64,000 bases of DNA from Acholoe squamosa (lineage: Eukaryota > Annelida > Polychaeta > Phyllodocida > Polynoidae), in assembly GCA_949317995.1 (NCBI GenBank), contig OX439041.1:47353269-47417268 (forward strand), read 5' to 3'. A program made the position numbers and the translations under genes. The notes under the pieces were generated by a model. It ran no database searches and had not been told where the DNA came from. It worked only from the letters and a program-made list of their open reading frames with translations. Shown in pieces: positions 1,115-63,986 of this stretch. Numbering within the stretch: the first letter of the stretch is position 1; the number at the start of each line of letters is the position of its first letter.

Positions 1115-2050
1115 TTAAATCATTACATCTAAAGCTAGCAAGCTGTCCTTAGACTCATGTAAGTATTTAAAAATAACATTAGATTTCCAATTGGCTTGCC
1201 TTATAATATCCTAAACACTTAGGCCTGCATCCTTCAATAAGGTTGCACCACCATGCCTAAGAGAGTGAGTTGAAATACTACTAGACAAACCACACTGAAG
1301 GGCAATAGATTTTAACTTTGTATTCACATAGTGATTATTCAACGGTCTAGACTGGATGGAAAATAGAAACCTGCTATGCTTACAGGCTTTTACACATTTC
1401 TTAATATATCTAGCCGGACACAAATCTGAACTATCATCTCTTTTAAGATACACCACATAAGAAGATTTGCCAAATTGGTCAGTTTTAGATGAAATAACTT
1501 TAATCTCTATACAATCAGAAGAAACCCTAACGTTCTTCTTTAAGAAGTTATGAGGTGAAAGTACTACATGTCCTATCCTGAACACACCTCGGTAACATAA
1601 CAGTATTGCAGACCAAAATACCATATACTCCATAGTGTCCAAATTAAGTCTAGATTTAATTTGAACCATATCACCAGGACTCAGAGAGTAGGTTGTACTA
1701 CCAGACCCCTTACACATCCTCTCTATACCATCAAGGGTTTTCTTTACCACAAAATTACCACTATAATCAGTATAACCTTTTAATTTCTGGTAATACCACA
1801 CAGCAGACAAATAATTCCTGACTGAAATAGGTTTCATAAAATCAGACAGGTACGCACAATATAAAGAAGCTTGAGAAGGAGAACAAGGAAGAAGTGTAAA
1901 ATTATATTTTCCACAAAATTTTTTGTACCTACTAAACTGCTGCCTACGAGTCTTACGAGTGGCCTCAGCTACACCTCTATACAAGGATTTTTTCCTTCTC
2001 CTCTCCAACTTCTTGAGGTCTGCAATCATAACAACACATGTTATATTCAC
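1115..2050 (-). pseudogene. Tyrosine recombinase (integrase) of the retrotransposon, amber-interrupted
   Basis: The frame from 2050 has a SAM-like N-terminal DNA-binding region (TRRQQFSRYKKFCGKY, CAYLSDFMKPISVRNYLSAV) and a catalytic part with VFWSAILLCYRGVFRIGHV (first catalytic Arg region) and STHSLRHGGATLLKDAG (the HxxRH box). A TAG codon at 1211-1213 stops it. The same frame continues to a TAA at 1115-1117 and includes NWKSNVIFKYLH, whose Tyr codon (1163-1165) is in the place of the catalytic nucleophile. So the active-site Tyr lies beyond the amber codon. In DIRS-order elements this recombinase inserts a circular DNA intermediate. Confidence 0.8.
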
Positions 2051-2184
2051 TCAAAACATTTTTACATTTCCTTGGGACACCTCTATAATTTAATCTAGAC
2101 AAATGGTCAGCTAAGATATTATCCTCTGATCTAATATATGTAGAATATATTTCGATATTATGGATAAAACATAACCAGAAAATC

Positions 2185-2733
2185 TCATGTAACCACCCCA
2201 TGCAATTTATTCTTGGATCTACCAGTATTTAACATGGCCAAGACCCGCATGTTGTCACTGATACAGTGGACTCTAGTATTACTAAATTTCTTCAAACCCA
2301 CCATTACCGGGTAGAGCTCATATACATTGATATTTCTATGATGAATCTTGAGATTATCCAAACTAGGAGCAAGGGTAAAATGGCCACAAAGACCCGGCAT
2401 TGGGTCTATATCATTCCAAGTGCCATACAGGTAATCCCTGTCTAACCAAGCCCCGAAACCTTGTATCGAGGAATCTGAAATCATAGGAGTACATACACTA
2501 TCATTTAAAATGATATTTTTACAGTTGAAGACTTTACAAAAATCTTTCCACCACATCAAATCCTTCCTGGTTTCTTCGTCCAGCTTAATAACACCCCTAT
2601 TTCTAGCCCTGGCACAGAGATCAAACAATCTTCTGCTGAAAGTCCTACCACCACGTACTACTTGTGAACAGAAAGACATTAAGCCACCAATTTTTTGGAG
2701 GATTTTTTTTATACAAACTTCCTCTCTAAACAT
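2185..2733 (-). pseudogene. RNase H domain of the retrotransposon
   Basis: The frame contains MISDSSIQGFGAWLDRD, VYELYPVMVGLKKF and VHCISDNMRVLAML, which give the D...E...D acidic residues of RNase H in DIRS-order polyproteins. The frame ends near 2185 while an overlapping frame (2201-1977) carries the last RNase H block (RSEDNILADHLSRL), so a frameshift near 2190 breaks the domain. It follows the RT directly, as expected. Confidence 0.75.
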
Positions 2734-2960
2734 TCATCCAGGGCCAGACTCATTTTATCTAATTTCTTCTGAGGTAAAGACAGCTCCATACTAGTGGATT
2801 CAATGGTTATACATAGGAATACACATATCTGGCTAGGTTCAGTTACCTTTTCCATCGAGACAATGAAACCCATGTACTCCATACATTCAATAAGGATATT
2901 CCTCTTACGTAAACACTCCCCCTCAGTTTTAGCAATGACAATAAAATCGTCCAAACAATT
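2709..2960 (-). pseudogene. Reverse transcriptase, catalytic LDD part
   Basis: Downstream half of the split RT. It begins with the catalytic box as CLDDFIVIAKTEGE, so the position before LDD is Cys, where Tyr, Val or Met is more usual, and continues with thumb-like sequence. Without the MITE at 2961-3591 and one copy of its target duplication, the reading frame runs from the preceding palm segment straight into this box. Confidence 0.7.
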
Positions 2961-3591
2961 GTGACCCATCTGGAGAAAACGTGCATCGGGGGGGATTTTT
3001 AGTTCTGCATTTGGCCACCAGGGGGCAATGTATGAGTAAAACACTGAAAAATATACCAAAAAATGGCTTAGATCAATTTTTGATGGGGAATTCAGTGGTA
3101 TGCTTAAAATTATTCAATTTCTACTGAAAAAGTTCCATTTATGGAATGCAAAAGAGACATCCTTTGCCATGGAAACATAGATAATTGTCAGATATGGCAA
3201 TTTCTGTTTGCCATGGAAAACACTTCATTATTCTAAAAGGTAATTTTTGCCAAAAATGTGTTGGATATTTCCATAAGGAACTCAAAACCGAAAACAGACC
3301 CACAAAATTCCCCCTAGAACCAATTTTATGATAAAAAAAAAAAAATCACATTTATTTGTTTATTTTTCCACAAAACTGTATTTCTTGCATTATCACTATT
3401 TAAAACTAGGATATAATGTATTTAGAGCTTATTTGCCTTTTTCAATTGCTCACAGCGACCTAGGTTTGACAAGCAATTACAGAAGACCTACCTGGAATAT
3501 TTTAGCTCAAGATATCCATTTTAAAGCACATGACTTCAACTTTAAAAACCCATTTCCCCCCCTGGATGCAAGTTTTCCCCCATCTGGTCAC
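2961..3591. mobile_element. MITE inserted inside the RT coding region
   Basis: A ~630 bp non-coding block interrupts the RT between the VDLK palm half and the LDD catalytic half. Its ends are inverted: GTGACCCATCTGGAGAAAAC on the left, and on the right the inverse of GTGACCAGATGGGGGAAAAC. Both continue into TTGCATC/GTGCATC and then a G run. AATT flanks both sides (2957-2960 and 3592-3595), a 4-bp (possibly 5-bp, CAATT) target duplication. No coding capacity is seen. The superfamily is not identified. It also contains a CCACCAGGGGGC word near 3015. Confidence 0.7.
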
Positions 3592-3595
3592 AATT

Positions 3596-4116
3596 AACTA
3601 TCCTATCAACACCATAGAACTTAGCTACCACAGTTAAAAAATCAGATATTCTATTGAAGATATACGGGGCACATTTCAGACCAAAGGTCAAGCGGTTGCT
3701 CTCAAAAAATTCTTCTTCATTACCGAAATCCCATCTGAAACCCTGGTAACCTATATGTGGACCATACACATTGATACTTCTATAGGCAGATTTTAAATCA
3801 ACCATGCTCATATAGTCATTCTTATCCTACTGATATGTTACCGTATTTCTGCTGGCATGCTACAATCCGTGATAGGTTTTAATTTACCATTAGACTTTTC
3901 TACACCACCTAGAGAGTGAATACACTTAGGTTTATAGGCTGTCTTCGTGACCAAGCCCTGGGACAGCTTGTCCTTGATAATATCACACATTTCGTCATTA
4001 AATTTACCTTCTACAATAGACTTATAATTTTTACAGTCATATGCTGTATCACAACACATTGACACATTGACACAACTATCATAAACCCTGATGCTGGGTC
4101 TATTAACACACTCCAC
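3596..4116 (-). pseudogene. Reverse transcriptase, N-terminal and palm part (broken)
   Basis: Two frames, about 4116-3838 and 3811-3596, carry the fingers region (LGGVEKSNGKLKPITDC) and the first palm motif (VDLKSAYRSINVYGPHIGYQ) followed by LTFGLKCAPYIFNRI. These are typical of DIRS-order RT, where the first catalytic Asp is in VDLK. Stops and a frame change near 3812-3837 separate the two parts. The frame then runs into an inserted MITE at 3591. The rest of the RT continues on the far side of the insertion from 2960. Annotated as a broken copy of a retrotransposon enzyme. Confidence 0.75.
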
Positions 4117-4436
4117 CGTAAAACGGGCTTCCCTAGCCCACTTAAAAGGGTCTATATCTCTTCTTTCCTATCCCCTCAGGATGTGTGTCGTGCACATATG
4201 TGCGGGCACTGACACAACTCCACCGTACACAGTGGTTCAACCTCGCCCTGTACTGGGCCACTATGGGTTATAAAAAGATTCTTGTCATCCACACAAGACT
4301 CATTAACATCATTTTTATTATTTTCACCCGAAATGATAGGAACGGGGGGCTCAGGAGGATCTACCGCATGTACTATATTAAAATCAGGCACCAATACATC
4401 AGACTCTAAAATAGGACCCTGCCTAAGAACAAAATC

Positions 4437-4919
4437 CTAATCCTTCTTATTCTTCTGGCATTTATCCTTGCCATAGTTAGACAAACCACAAACATCACAG
4501 GCATGTCGATATCTACATGGGTCCTCCTTACACCCCTCGGCCCTGTTAAACGCATAGCAAGTGCGATTGGATTGTTTGCATTTGAAACTTTTAGGCTTGA
4601 CTACACCCGCCTTCTGGGCCTGAACCGTCCCATCATAGGATAAATGTCTAAGAATATCTTCACTCCTTACATCACTGAATGAATCCATACCATCAGAATT
4701 AGCCCTGTTTTTAACAGATGAATCGTATGTCACTACGGCTTTGAGAGTATATATCTTGGTTGAGGATTTTTCCATCAACACCTCTATGTGTTTTACTACA
4801 TCGAAGACATCCTCCCCCTCCTCTATCAACTGTTTCATCATTCTTACGTTAACCAACAGTAATTTCTCAATGCTATAGAGTTTCTCACCCTTTTTAAGAA
4901 AATTCTTTTGATCGAACAT
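4437..4919 (-). pseudogene. Gag-like ORF of the tyrosine-recombinase retrotransposon
   Basis: A 160-codon frame with a Lys-rich, helical N-terminal half and a C-terminal Cys/His cluster (CYAFNRAEGCKEDPCRYRH, then CDVCGL). The CX8CX5CX3H spacing is that of a CCCH zinc finger, as found in Gag-like proteins of DIRS-order elements, where it is thought to bind element RNA. It lies just downstream of repeat A1. The upstream start may be lost, because the first ATG at 4919 is not clearly the original one. Function is inferred from position and the zinc finger. Confidence 0.6.
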
Positions 4920-5080
4920 ACCTCTAGCTCTATGTGCATGACGACGACCATTCCTAGAGGAGATTAAACCTGTAGATGTGGAGGAATTAGAAGAAATGCT
5001 ATGGCACTGCGTTTTCTGTCGCTATGGAACTCGCAGTAGTCCGGTGACCGTTGTTGCACGCCCCCATTGCTTGGTTACTG

Positions 5081-27052: not shown

Positions 27053-30000
27053 TCATGTTGGGATGAGACTCTTCATTATCGAAATACTTTGCTCCCGATA
27101 GCCTGTCCCAAAATGATTCCTGAAATAAAGCAATATTATATTTCCCATTTATAGTCAAATTCATATCCAAATATGATAATGTCAATAATTTTCATAAGAT
27201 CACATAGTTGCAACTCTTCTAGACATAACCCTTTTACCCATATGGAATCCTAATATGGACACCCACTGGCTATCTCAAATAAGACGCACAATGGTCGGTA
27301 CCCATGTAAAATCCCTTAAGCCACCGACAGGGTATCCCCAAGAACACGGCCAATACCCACCTAACAACACATCTACAATTACCAAAATAGTCACTGCGCT
27401 ATGAGCCTTGTGTACTCTAATATTGAATTATCTTTATACATTGAGCTTTCTTGCTTTTCACTGAAATTCCATACTAACTGTTACTGGTAGTTGTAGAAAT
27501 ACTGCATACCGTAATCTCCCGCGTAGAAGGCGCGTCTTCTACGCCAAACAAAATGCTGCTGGGTCTTATACGCGGGAGGGGCATTGCCTTGAGTTTGGGG
27601 TGCGCCTTATACGCTGGTTTTTCCAACATCTCAATTGGCAATTATCATAGTTTAGCAGGCTGAACTCAAGAACAGCATTTTTTTTATAAGCTGAGTTGGT
27701 ATGGCTGTTTTGAGAGTTTAGATTTCTAAGCTAAATTCTCGCGGCAGACCAGTAGGTGTCAACGCGCTCATCAAGCCGACCGTGTGCTGATGACAGCTTG
27801 AACTCATATAGCCAGCAGCGCGGCAGCCCGGTCGGTGTACAGGCGCTCGGCGGGCATTACACCGACTGTGTGCCGATGACAGCTTGAACTCATAACGCCC
27901 TCACCGCGGCAGACCAGTAGGTGTCGACGCACTCGCCGGGGATAAGGCCCACCATGCGCCGATGACAGCTTGAACTCATATAGCCAGCAGCGCGGCAGCC
28001 CGGTCGGTGTACAGGCGCTCGGCGGGTTCAAGCCGACGGTGTGCCGATGACAGCTTGAACTCATAGCGCCAGCAGCGCGGCAGCCTGGTCGCTGTAGATT
28101 TGCTCGGCAGGCAATACGCCGACCGTGTGCCGATGACAGCTTGAACTCATAGAGCCAGCACCGCGGCAGACCGGGAGGTGTACAATAGTGGGGGGTGGGG
28201 GGGGGGGGCGCCTTATACGCGGGTTTTTCCAGAAACCGATCCAGAAGAGGTACGTGCGCCTTCTACGTGAAAAGGCCTTCTCTGAGTTGGGGGGGCGCCT
28301 TCTACGCGAGCTGCGCCTTCTACGCGGGAGATTACGGTATATACCCATTTTCAGTTAACTCATCATTGCTATGGACTACAGTTACGACATGGTGTTTTAC
28401 AATGACGTATACATACCAGTGATTTAAGTAGTGAAAGAGTTTGTAGAGAGAAACCCTCTTCCTCAAACCCGGTGATCTTGGTATCAGTCTGTGATATGCA
28501 TCATAAAAGTCCTTGCTGAAGCCTCCAAACATACCAGCAATACCTAATTCATACTCATGGTGCCCGTAGAAAGATGCCGCATCAAATATGACTGTAATAA
28601 TAAGGGAATAAAAACTACTCAACTAAAGCCTTGCAGAGCAGCATTACATGTGAACATCATCTACTACTACCAAAAATGTTTTATTTTGTTTTTCTTTTTA
28701 TAATATACAATGTATACATATATTGACATATTAATTACACATCTTCTAAACAAAGGTCAGAATGCAAATTATTTCTCACTGTGTTCTTTCGTTGTTATAC
28801 AATTTATCTTATTGGTACAGCTGTGAAAACTGAACCTTTGTGAAGATGGTAGCAAATAGTGCATTTTGCCCTTCCCCATTAATAGTTCTCTTACCGGCTT
28901 CATTGTCGGTTTCAGCCACGTTACCGCCCCACAGGTCACCGTGAAGGAGTGCTGGGTACACGGTCACTCCCTCAAACAGGGCAGGGATAGCAGGGAGTAA
29001 GCGCTGCCACAAGTTACGTGCCCCTTGGTCTCTGTACTGAAAGTGTCATACATGTACATGACATGGCTATACCCGGGTCGTAGCAAATTAATTACAGGTA
29101 CATTATAGATCTTCTAAGAGGATACACATTGCAAAGATGTATTATAGTTTACATGAAAGGGTGTACAGGTATTAAGTTCAAAGTTCACATCACAGAGAAC
29201 ACTATCTCTATCCATACACATTACATGGAGATACTTATTAATAGATGAATACTGCCATATATATGTATTTCATGGTACATTTACCTCCTTTTCAATCATG
29301 TCGAGCTGTGGTTGCAGTTTATGCCTACAGTAGAAGGTCTGCAAAGGGAGAGTTTCAATGTAAATGGCACCAATAACTATAGAAATGGAAATCTAGTATA
29401 AGACTGACAAACTAATAAACAATAAGTTAGATTATTCCTTAGGCCACAGCAAATTAAAAAATTGGTCTATGGATTTTCTATTTTAGAAAATGGGGCGGGA
29501 GGGCGAAATTTTTATTTTATTTTTCTAGGAAAATTTATTTGTCTATGGATTTTGCAAAGCCAAAATGTTGAGGAGGCAATTTTTTTTTTGCTCCTTTGCT
29601 CAGATGTCTATTTTAGCATCTTCTATCAAAGCACATCATAAGTATTGGAATTAACATCTGTAGACCTTTCCCTATTCAATGAGTGGTCTGCCTTTTCTCT
29701 AACTTCTTTGGTTGACCTTTAAAATAAATAAAAAAAATCTAAATTTCCCAGAAAATGATGCGGGCGGGATCCATAGACATAATATTTTTCAAATAAAAAT
29801 AAAATATGGATTTTAGAAAATAAGGCGCGGGAAATCCATAGACCAACTTTTTAATTTGGTGTGGCCTTAGGGAAGTTGGGGCGAGGAAATAAAGATTTTG
29901 TGGCATGAGTGTGATAGGGTTGGTGGTGGGGGTTAGAGAAAAGCAAATACACGTCAATTCCTATACAATGTATTATTTTAGAGGCTGATACAGCAGTTCT

Positions 30001-60542: not shown

Positions 60543-61471
60543 TAACTATTAGTAAAAGTAAATAGTCTTAGCATTGGATGAGCGTCAGAGTAGGCATATA
60601 TGTGTGTCACGGGGTGATAGCTCATGAGGGCCCTGGTCAACTGCAATATTGATGTCTCAAATTATGTCGTATTATGCCCTTCAATTCCTTATACATAAGA
60701 CATGGGTTGGGCGGGGGGCTGGGGTGTTTTCATTTGGGGTCTTATATTATTTATAGAATCTTATATATCCTGATATAGGTCTCCTCCTCGCCCATCTTTT
60801 TGAGAAAAGAATATTCACATTTTGAAAAAAAAATACTTTGTATATTTACTTTGTAAATTCACCATTCATTTTCCAAGAATTATCAGTAAGAAAACGTAAA
60901 ACTTTGTTCGAAATTGACCACATTTGGACCTATTGGGCACAATATTCCTGTATGGGGCACAAGTTTCTTCTCTAGCTTGATTTGCCGAACACAGGGTGTC
61001 ACACTCCTGTTAACGCACACTCACAGGTTATTGGCCCAGGGTATCCCCTGGGCTATTGGAGCCGGGTTTTCAGTCAGATCCACAAATTTGTAATCACCAA
61101 CTTTAGGGTGTAATCATTCAGTGATATACTGTTAGTTTACCCATTTTTCAAAAGCCAAAGGAAAGTTTCAAATCTCATCTATCAGACAACATTTTGTCCT
61201 TTATGGTGAGTGATGTCTTTCTCTACGGAAAAAAAGCTGCTGTACTTACGTCATGTTTTTGGGAGCTATACTGACTACAAGTTCTTTAACCATTGGGTCT
61301 ATGGGTCAGATAGATTTTGGTGATGAAATTAGCACATGGAGTCCTATGGGTAATCACCAAGTGAGACCCTTTTTTTCAGCAGGCAATGTTTACAGTGTCC
61401 AAGCTATACACATAACACATTGGGGACTGAGCGATAAACTAAGCATGCTAAGGATAAAGTTTTCTGTGGGG

Positions 61472-61570
61472 GCCAGGTGTCCAGGGGGCTAGGTGTCCAG
61501 GGGGTCAGGTGTCCAGGGGCCAAGTGTCCAGAGGCCAGGTGTCCGGGGGCCAGCACACCATGGGGCCAGC
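61472..61570. repeat. CAGGTGTCCAGGGGGC short tandem repeat
   Basis: About six copies of a 15-17 bp unit (AGGTGTCCAGGGGGC and variants), the last ones degenerate. It lies about 400 bp upstream of the exon at 61968. Confidence 0.8.
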
Positions 61571-61967
61571 GGTCCAAGGGGTTTTGTAAGAGAAGATTAT
61601 GCCAGACTGGTGTCAGTACATATAGATAATAGTCTCTATTTGTAAGTAATTAGTCAATATTTCGCAAGTGCTGATTCCTGTGACCCTACAGGGTTGATAG
61701 AGGGTTTTATGGTACCTACCCTGAGCCTTCTGTGCTTCAATGCACAATGCCCAATTTTTATATTGGGGGGGGGGGTAGTAGACCCTGGGCCATATGTGAT
61801 ATATATCACATGTTAAATCTTATTATATACCGTTATTGAAGCTTAGCTCCTACATGAGTGCCCATTTCTTGTAGTGATATGAAGAAATGGACAGAATCAC
61901 GGTAGTGAAGTTGTACTAAATCCTGTTGTGACACCTATAACACCTGTTTTCTCTTGTCCTTCCTCAG

Positions 61968-62588: not shown

Positions 62589-63986
62589 AGGCCACACCAA
62601 AAAAAATAAGTTTGTCTACGGATTTTGGTTTTGAAAAAAATGGTGCGAGCGAGCGATTTTTTTTATTTTATTTTTTTTAAAGATTTTTTTAGCGTCCAAT
62701 GGATTCCTTGCTGGGAAATTGAGGCGAGCAAACAATTTTTTTTTTAATTTTGCCAAACATCACAAAGAGAAAACTTGTAGAAACTGAAGGCAGGACGCAA
62801 CTTGTTACATCGGACTATGCCCTTGGGGCATTCAGATTTCCGCGTGGGAGTGACGCGGAAATTACTTTCCCACACTTGGTGTGGGAAGGGGACAGAGGAG
62901 AGTGCATGCCCCCGGGGCATCGATGCCCCTGGGGCATAGGTACTGCGATCTTGTATAATGAGAGCTCCTACAGCCAATAGACCTAGCTGTGCCCTCAGGG
63001 AATGTCAAGAGAGCTCTGCCCCCTCACTTAATTGTTATTTTAATACAGTCTATAGAACTTAGAAGAAAAGAAGGGACATGCCCTGAGGGCATAGATCATG
63101 CTTGTGCTGCCCTGAGGGCATGCACTAGTCAATTAACTCTAGGCTATAACATGGAGGATAGCCTTGGGCTGATAATCACTAATGCCCTGGGGGCATGCAC
63201 CTACAACAAACCTATAGTCTATGGATGTGATAAATATGCCCTGAGGGTATAATTATATTGGTCAATTATATACTCTATGGAAGTAGACCAACATATATGC
63301 CCAATGACACTATGCCCTTGGGGCATAGCCTACCGCTATATTGAGCCCTTAGGGCCTGATCTGGACTAGGCCCCCTATACAGGAATGTTTATCATCAGGA
63401 CATCTGCACGTTTAGGCTATGAAGCTCTAATGGCATTTTTATTATCAATGCCCTCAGGGAATCAGTGCTCACTCATTGATGCCCCCAGGGAATGTCTCTT
63501 CTCTGAAGGCAATGGACAGAAATATCTCCTGGAGATAATAATTACCCCCTAGGGCATAATTCCCTACCTAAGTATGGTATAGTTTTTGTATTCAAAGTAA
63601 TGCCCTTGGGGCATTCATACACTAGTAATGCCCTAAGGGCATGCTTTGGTGGGGAGAGTGGCCTGGACAATGCTGATGTTGCCCTGAGTAAAAGGGTAGG
63701 AATATGCCATCAGGAACGATGCACAATGCCCTGAGGGCATACACTAGAATAGGTCAATTGTTGATATGTAAAGGCCAGCAATATGCCCCCAGGGCATGCT
63801 CAATCCCGCGTGGCAGTCCCAGAAATATACGCGTCACCAGTGGGTCGGCGCTGAATGCCCTTAGGGCATAGTCCGACGTAACAAGTTGCATTCTGCAAAC
63901 TGCAGCAAGCGAAATCCGTAGACAAGATTTTTTTCAGAGAAAAAAAAAAATGTATTTCCTAGATTGGAGTCCTAGATTTTGTGGCT
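62589..63986. mobile_element. GGCCACA-ended element carrying a dense palindrome array
   Basis: The left end (TAAGGCCACACCAAA, then TTTGTCTACGGATTTTGG) matches the 29440-29872 MITE family. Its inverse partner GAAATCCGTAGACAA is at 63911-63925 and a degenerate terminus (TTTTGTGGC) near 63986. A second, inner inverted pair bounds the array: GCAACTTGTTACATCGGAC (62798) and GTCCGACGTAACAAGTTGC (63889). Between these lies the array of TGCCC...GGGCA palindromes. The right border is uncertain because the element runs close to the window end. Confidence 0.65.
62817..63871. repeat. Array of ~18 interspersed 13-bp palindromes, TGCCCTNAGGGCA type
   Basis: Perfect or near-perfect copies begin near 62817, 62907, 62921, 63079, 63110, 63182, 63236, 63311, 63600, 63627, 63727, 63783 and 63855, with half-degenerate ones at about 62990, 63342, 63449, 63480 and 63544. 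The spacers between them are unrelated to each other and variable in length, so this is not a simple tandem repeat. The two central bases vary (TG, TT, CC, CT, TA) while the outer TGCCC and GGGCA are kept. Confidence 0.85.

What the first reader, a model, noticed from the sequence alone, without database searches (positions are those of the whole stretch)
62817..63871. Palindrome array resembling clustered AP-2 sites inside a transposon
About eighteen copies of ATGCCC(T/C)N(A/G)GGGCAT in 1.05 kb, with conserved half-sites, variable centres and unrelated spacers. Conservation of only the half-sites looks like conservation of a protein-binding site or hairpin, and less like decay of a tandem unit. 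The TFAP2 dimer motif is known to be GCCYNRGGC with an extended TGCCCTNAGGGCA form; several imperfect copies (CCCTCAGGGA) also resemble the EBF site. A mobile element that disperses AP-2-like site clusters would be a notable regulatory cargo. The link to AP-2 is an inference.
Basis: partly seen in the sequence, partly recalled or inferred. Interest (0 to 1): 0.75.

Follow-up and report, generated by a model that had tools for sequence, protein, structure and literature searches.

The report
Transposon packed with palindromic binding sites
A short, gene-less jumping element, present in many copies in this genome, is filled with a repeated 15-letter palindrome that looks like a docking site for a paired protein, most likely the enzyme that moves it rather than a host gene switch.

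Summary
Window 62790-63896 is a 1107-bp non-coding DNA transposon with 46-bp terminal inverted repeats and a 9-bp target duplication. It holds 19 copies (11 exact) of ATGCCCYNRGGGCAT. The 22 full-length copies aligned lie a median 1.3% from their consensus, so they are young. Other subfamilies share the ends and the palindrome at about 7-20 per kb. Genome-wide the palindrome occurs 7150 times, against 183 for the reversed control. Half-sites come almost only as pairs spaced by exactly 3 bp. Changes in one half are not compensated in the other, so hairpin pairing is not what is kept. The window copy's spacers are unrelated, so this is not a decayed tandem unit. One palindrome lies inside each terminal repeat. 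Best reading: a dimeric protein, most likely the element's own transposase, binds the sites. The AP-2 likeness of the motif is real, but nothing here shows AP-2 binding. No autonomous partner was found. Of four longer terminal-repeat pairs, two are array elements split by other insertions and two were only sampled. None of the transposase loci opened (10 of 36 MULE, 1 of 46 IS1595-like) carries the sites. The superfamily is unproven; the 9-bp duplication fits Mutator-like elements best.

The parts
62790..63896 (+). non-autonomous DNA transposon, 1107 bp
   Evidence: ends set by comparison with other genomic copies
62790..62835 (+). left terminal inverted repeat (46 bp), contains the first palindrome at 62817
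   Evidence: inverted repeat I1, 89% complementary
63851..63896 (-). right terminal inverted repeat (46 bp), contains the last palindrome at 63855
   Evidence: inverted repeat I1
62781..62789 (.). left 9-bp target duplication AAACTGAAG
   Evidence: 8 of 9 match with the right copy
63897..63905 (.). right 9-bp target duplication AAACTGCAG
62817..63869 (.). array of 19 palindromic sites ATGCCCYNRGGGCAT at <=3 mismatches (11 exact)

Best explanation
The feature is a young, non-coding, non-autonomous DNA transposon made of terminal inverted repeats and an array of two-fold symmetric sites: two 7-bp half-sites RGGGCAT facing each other across 1 bp (ATGCCCY-N-RGGGCAT). Shown: the ends, the 9-bp target duplication, the many copies and subfamilies, and the fixed spacing. 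Inferred: a protein that binds as a dimer recognises each palindrome. That protein is most likely the transposase (or a helper) made by an autonomous relative, and the many sites recruit it to the element and help it move. A Mutator-like (MULE) source is the first guess for the superfamily because of the 9-bp duplication, but this is not shown.
For: 9-bp duplication: 21 of 27 copies with two recognisable ends match at 8-9 of 9 bases (15 perfect). The mean match is 0.86 at length 9 and 0.21-0.32 at lengths 7, 8, 10 and 11; 3 of 30 loci had no end pair. A 33-bp terminal pattern that includes ATGCCC: 334 + 316 exact matches, reversed control 0. Palindrome 7150, control 183; the 4-bp-spaced form 152, control 8. 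In 14 segments of elements (some related to each other), half-site pairs with <=1 change per half have a 3-bp gap 150 times, 2 bp 5, 4 bp 4, 5 bp 1 and 7 bp 1; 250 exact half-sites lie inside sites and 5 are orphans. Half-site changes are not compensatory: 1 case in 165 sites, with 5 double changes against about 7.6 expected; positions 7 and 9 do not covary (Fisher p 0.21). Site places are retained between subfamilies: 7 of 14 in L009 and 8 of 14 in L011, reached in 4 and 2 of 500 circular shifts. In Aedes aegypti, non-autonomous derivatives of MULEs share terminal and subterminal repeat arrays with an 8-9 bp duplication (PMC5225508, passages).
Against: No autonomous partner was found, so who binds is unknown. 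None of the 10 MULE-hit loci opened (of 36 hits; L051 read on one side only) has the sites; two have one weak terminal-like match each, fewer than shuffles give. When sites were masked before alignment, half-sites were no better conserved than spacers (0.80 vs 0.78, p 0.60; 0.77 vs 0.75, p 0.54), so the conservation signal between subfamilies depends on how they are aligned. Within the young family the difference is small (0.971 vs 0.959). Sites fill the whole element, which is more than a minimal transposase need.
Confidence: 0.58

Rival explanations
1. The array is a cluster of binding sites for the host transcription factor AP-2 (or a similar dimeric host factor), which the element uses for its own expression or retention and incidentally disperses to host genes.
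For: The motif fits the AP-2 dimer site GCCN3GGC with a Y-N-R centre. PMC9877354 gives GCCN3-5GGC (start of abstract in the listing); the extended TGCCCYNRGGGCA form is recalled. Y at position 7 and R at position 9 occur together in 155 of 165 sites and vary independently, as in a site made of two half-sites.
Against: AP-2 is described as accepting 3-5 bp gaps (PMC9877354), whereas here the gap is almost always 3. A site is built into both terminal repeats. The window copy is non-coding, so it has no gene of its own to regulate. No binding data.
Confidence: 0.17
2. The palindromes are kept as hairpins or cruciforms, acting in single-stranded DNA or in RNA.
For: Each site is an inverted repeat by itself, and other hairpin-like inverted repeats lie near the element ends (by eye, sequence).
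Against: Half-site changes are not compensated (1 compensatory change in 165 sites; double changes no more frequent than expected). The unpaired T.G and C.A combinations at positions 7/9 are common (15 and 12 of 67 sites with perfect half-sites).
Confidence: 0.06
3. The array is a decayed tandem repeat or satellite with no role.
For: Local duplications of site-bearing units occur, for example near-identical units 91 bp apart in L008 (by eye).
Against: Spacers show no mutual similarity in the window copy and site spacing is irregular. The half-site pair with a fixed gap is shared across subfamilies such as L008, whose interior aligns with the window family only in short stretches.
Confidence: 0.06
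4. The mobilising enzyme is a THAP-domain (P-element-like) transposase, and each palindrome is two overlapping THAP sites.
For: THAP1's consensus TNNNGGCA (PMC11811203, passage) reads into both halves of the T-N-A sites. The genome holds 68 THAP matches, several with equal scores and frame lengths as in multi-copy families.
Against: T stands at position 7 in only 38 of 67 sites with perfect half-sites. P elements make 8-bp duplications (recalled), not 9. None of the 6 THAP matches lying in the listed span (C1 and C2 to 80.6 Mb) is within 200 kb of a listed terminal repeat; the listings show exact ends only.
Confidence: 0.1

Closest known systems
Non-autonomous derivatives of Mutator-like elements with subterminal repeat arrays (Muta1 and Muta5 of Aedes aegypti, PMC5225508, passages)
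   Same: Terminal inverted repeats with short motif arrays, 8-9 bp target duplication, many derivatives with different interiors that keep the ends.
   Different: There the repeats are 12- or 15-bp tandem units in a terminal repeat of about 150 bp (3-4 bp apart in Muta1). Here the unit is a 15-bp palindrome at irregular spacing through the whole element. No MULE transposase was linked to it.
MITEs in general
   Same: Short, non-coding, terminal inverted repeats, target duplication, many near-identical copies.
   Different: An unusually dense array of one palindromic site, shared by several subfamilies (how unusual is my judgement, not a count).
TFAP2 (AP-2) dimer site
   Same: GCCYNRGGC core with flanking symmetry.
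   Different: Almost fixed 3-bp gap and flanking AT in both half-sites; arrays of about 7-20 per kb within a transposon; no binding evidence.

Membership tests
MITE / non-autonomous DNA transposon | terminal inverted repeats | tested here: met
   46 bp, 89%; exact 33-bp terminal pattern 334 + 316 in the genome, control 0
MITE / non-autonomous DNA transposon | target-site duplication of fixed length | tested here: met
   9 bp; 21 of 27 copies at 8-9 of 9
MITE / non-autonomous DNA transposon | many similar copies, no coding capacity | tested here: met
   22 full-length copies aligned, median 1.3% from consensus; longest stop-to-stop frame listed inside the window copy is 96 codons, at 62962-63252
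Mutator-like (MULE) superfamily | 8-11 bp, typically 9-bp, target duplication (range recalled; 8-9 bp in PMC5225508) | tested here: met
Mutator-like (MULE) superfamily | autonomous member with the same ends encoding a MULE DDE transposase | tested here: inconclusive
   36 MULE matches in the genome; 10 loci opened (one of them on one side only), none with the palindromes; the other 26 not opened
P-element / THAP | 8-bp target duplication (recalled) | tested here: not met
   9 bp
P-element / THAP | THAP transposase within elements bearing these ends | tested here: inconclusive
   coordinates only: 6 of 68 THAP matches lie in the listed span, none within 200 kb of a listed end
IS1595-like / Merlin | 8-9 bp target duplication (recalled) | tested here: met
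IS1595-like / Merlin | IS1595-like transposase within these ends | tested here: inconclusive
   46 matches; 1 locus opened on both sides, no palindromes
AP-2 binding site | GCCYNRGGC core | tested here: met
   11 exact sites; Y at 7 and R at 9 in 155 of 165 sites
AP-2 binding site | occupancy by AP-2 | not testable with these tools
   needs EMSA, SELEX or ChIP

The most novel reading that the evidence does not exclude
A transposon lineage has built its whole body from a dimer site identical in form to the AP-2 consensus, and spread thousands of such sites through an animal genome. Either it hijacks host AP-2 to reach active germline chromatin, or its transposase has independently evolved AP-2-like dimeric recognition, so that the transposon and the AP-2 network share sites.
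Probability: 0.17. Interest if true: 0.75.

Novelty: new variant of a known kind. Interest (0 to 1): 0.4.

Why it matters
If the sites bind the transposase, this is a clear natural case of an element reduced to little but ends and docking sites, and a way to fish out an unknown transposase by its DNA target. If they bind AP-2, a recent burst of transposition has scattered thousands of strong sites for a developmental regulator, which could be tested directly for effects on nearby genes.

Tried and rejected
Autonomous partner, long pairs. The listings (to C2:80.6 Mb, to C2:71.3 Mb; about 100 places each, exact matches only) show four terminal-repeat pairs 3-20 kb apart. C1:43525527-43531554 (6.0 kb, duplication TGATGATCG on both sides) is an array element holding a truncated copy of another multi-copy transposon. 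Many other copies of that transposon start at the same point, and one of them, read upstream (L049) and downstream (L048), has no palindromes. C1:22063037-22071277 (8.2 kb, duplication 7 of 9) is an array element interrupted by about 7 kb of another repeat; one stretch of 1.5 kb was not read. C2:57553083-57562225 was sampled in two 1-kb pieces, one Gypsy-like by eye; its flanks match at 5 of 9. C1:36467847-36484437 was sampled in one 1-kb piece that looks by eye like part of a cellular gene; its flanks match at 4 of 9, so it may be two separate elements.

Autonomous partner, transposase families: MULE (10 of 36 loci opened), THAP (coordinates only), FLYWCH (4 matches, one inside the MULE gene of L050, which has no palindromes), IS1595-like (1 of 46 opened). 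On the listed parts of C1 and C2 the nearest listed end to a MULE match is about 55 kb away and to an IS1595-like match about 15 kb (C2:37719746, not opened). KDZ (PF18758) did not complete.

Conservation. The first alignment gave half-sites 168/189 vs spacers 418/541 (L009) and 212/252 vs 523/713 (L011). Masking the sites removed the excess. Flank-anchored placement restored it: 7 of 14 vs 5 of 58 control windows for L009, 8 of 14 vs 14 of 58 for L011, with circular shifts. One search also gave excesses for L010 (5 of 14 vs 0 of 58) and the two L047 arms (2 and 6 of 14 vs 0 and 2 of 58), which I do not count, because placement there is unsure and sites are so dense that chance hits are common. 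The per-column values and two divergence values are wrong, because two of 22 copies (L019, L024) were reversed. One search repeats both; the consensus was unchanged.

Papers: 8 searches. One search (THAP, TGCCC) held 0 papers; (internal palindromes, MITE) listed 12 of 15; (ATGCCC, GGGCAT, transposon) listed 10 of 138. I saw only listings, and nothing in them did I recognise as this element. One search (FLYWCH site) gave nothing usable. Passages were read in PMC11811203 and PMC5225508 only.

Full report
What is there. One search finds 19 copies of ATGCCCYNRGGGCAT (<=3 mismatches) at 62817-63869, 11 exact. In 1000 dinucleotide shuffles of the element the mean number of sites with <=1 mismatch is 0.005, against 15 seen. 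The sites lie in a 1107-bp element, 62790-63896, bounded by 46-bp inverted repeats and by a 9-bp duplication, AAACTGAAG / AAACTGCAG.

It is a transposon with many young copies. Of these 30, 27 have two recognisable ends and 3 do not (L020, L037, L041). Of the 27, 21 have a duplication matching at 8-9 of 9 bases; the mean match is 0.86 at length 9 and 0.21-0.32 at lengths 7, 8, 10 and 11. The 22 copies of 1040-1150 bp lie 0.6-3.7% from their consensus, median 1.3%. Each of the 22 keeps 12-17 sites at <=1 mismatch. These copies were found by likeness to the window copy, so any that lack the array would be missed.

It belongs to a larger clan. The exact 33-bp terminal pattern, which includes ATGCCC, occurs 334 + 316 times, reversed control 0; the 26-bp form without it and with up to 3 mismatches occurs 605 + 620 times, control 0 and 1. 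Other loci with these ends (L008, L009, L010, L011, L014, L047) are 0.4-2.4 kb long once the nested insertion in L047 is set aside; the right end of L015 was not found, and that of L011 lacks most of the terminal repeat and was placed by eye. They carry the same palindrome at about 7-20 per kb. In L011 the middle 1 kb has no site. L012 and L013 carry decayed arrays without recognisable ends of this kind.

What is conserved is a pair of half-sites. Genome-wide there are 7150 palindromes with the 3-bp Y-N-R centre (reversed control 183) but only 152 with a 4-bp gap (control 8). In 14 held segments the gap is 3 in 150 cases, 2 in 5, 4 in 4, and 5 and 7 once each; 250 exact half-sites lie inside sites and 5 are orphans. 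Among 165 sites (12 segments, some related to each other), changes in one half are not balanced in the other, and positions 7 and 9 vary independently. This speaks against hairpins and for a two-fold symmetric protein site, ATGCCCY-N-RGGGCAT. The window copy's spacers share nothing with each other. Between subfamilies the sites stay in corresponding places more often than under circular shifts, although an alignment with sites masked shows no excess of conservation; I therefore call site retention likely, not proven.

How it probably works. One palindrome begins 28 bases from each end, inside the terminal repeat, in the window copy and in the family consensus. Dense internal copies of the same site would let a dimeric transposase load along the whole element. 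This is inference: I found no autonomous copy. Of four longer terminal-repeat pairs, two are array elements split by other sequences and two were only sampled. MULE, THAP, FLYWCH and IS1595-like matches exist in the genome. None of the 10 MULE loci and 1 IS1595-like locus opened carries the sites, and most were not opened. Because the copies are young, a source was active recently and may still be present in the unlisted part of the genome.

Comparison. The 9-bp duplication and the derivatives sharing ends with repeat arrays resemble animal Mutator-like elements: all 14 families in Aedes aegypti have 8-9 bp duplications, and ten have subterminal repeats of 9-15 bp (PMC5225508, passages). There the repeats are tandem and terminal; here they are palindromic, irregularly spaced and fill the element. 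Membership in MULE is untested at the decisive point, the transposase. The THAP1 site TNNNGGCA (PMC11811203, passage) fits the right half only where T stands at position 7 (38 of 67 sites with perfect half-sites).

Verdict. Observation confirmed; transposon confirmed; AP-2 cargo possible but not favoured. I rate it a new variant of a known kind, of moderate interest, with a clear route to the unknown transposase.

Noticed in passing
window 62603-62630 and 63907-63934; similar stretch at 29441-29524: The element inserted into another repeat with its own inverted arms; related sequence (77% over 87 bp) occurs elsewhere in the window.
   Followed up: partly
L070 to L071 (C1, about 22063700-22070800): A roughly 7-kb repeat split an array element. 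It carries 7 TTGTACAA palindromes within about 1.2 kb and a recurring GTTGTGCCAG...GGTCTGGACAGTTA unit (by eye): possibly another element with its own site array.
   Followed up: no
L048 1-3037; L047 4614-5712: Multi-copy transposon gene (28 matches to its 76-residue start) with a Cys-rich N-terminal part, a DDTDIFALL...SGCDTVS stretch and a Cys-rich C-terminal part that weakly resembles a CXC domain (E 0.14); no Pfam match over a curated cut-off in the pieces scanned.
   Followed up: partly
window 1211-5021, - strand: DIRS-like element: tyrosine recombinase and reverse transcriptase pieces (PF00589 at 1211-2050, PF00078 at 3542-3826; the name DIRS is recalled).
   Followed up: no
window 61468-61581: Short tandem array of about 15-16 bp units GGGGCCAGGTGTCCA.
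   Followed up: no
own genome: 46 IS1595-like transposase matches, several with uninterrupted open frames of over 300 codons (up to 531), suggesting recently active elements.
   Followed up: partly
L008 3656-3860: Near-identical units 91 bp apart, each bearing two palindromes: the array can grow by local duplication (by eye).
   Followed up: no
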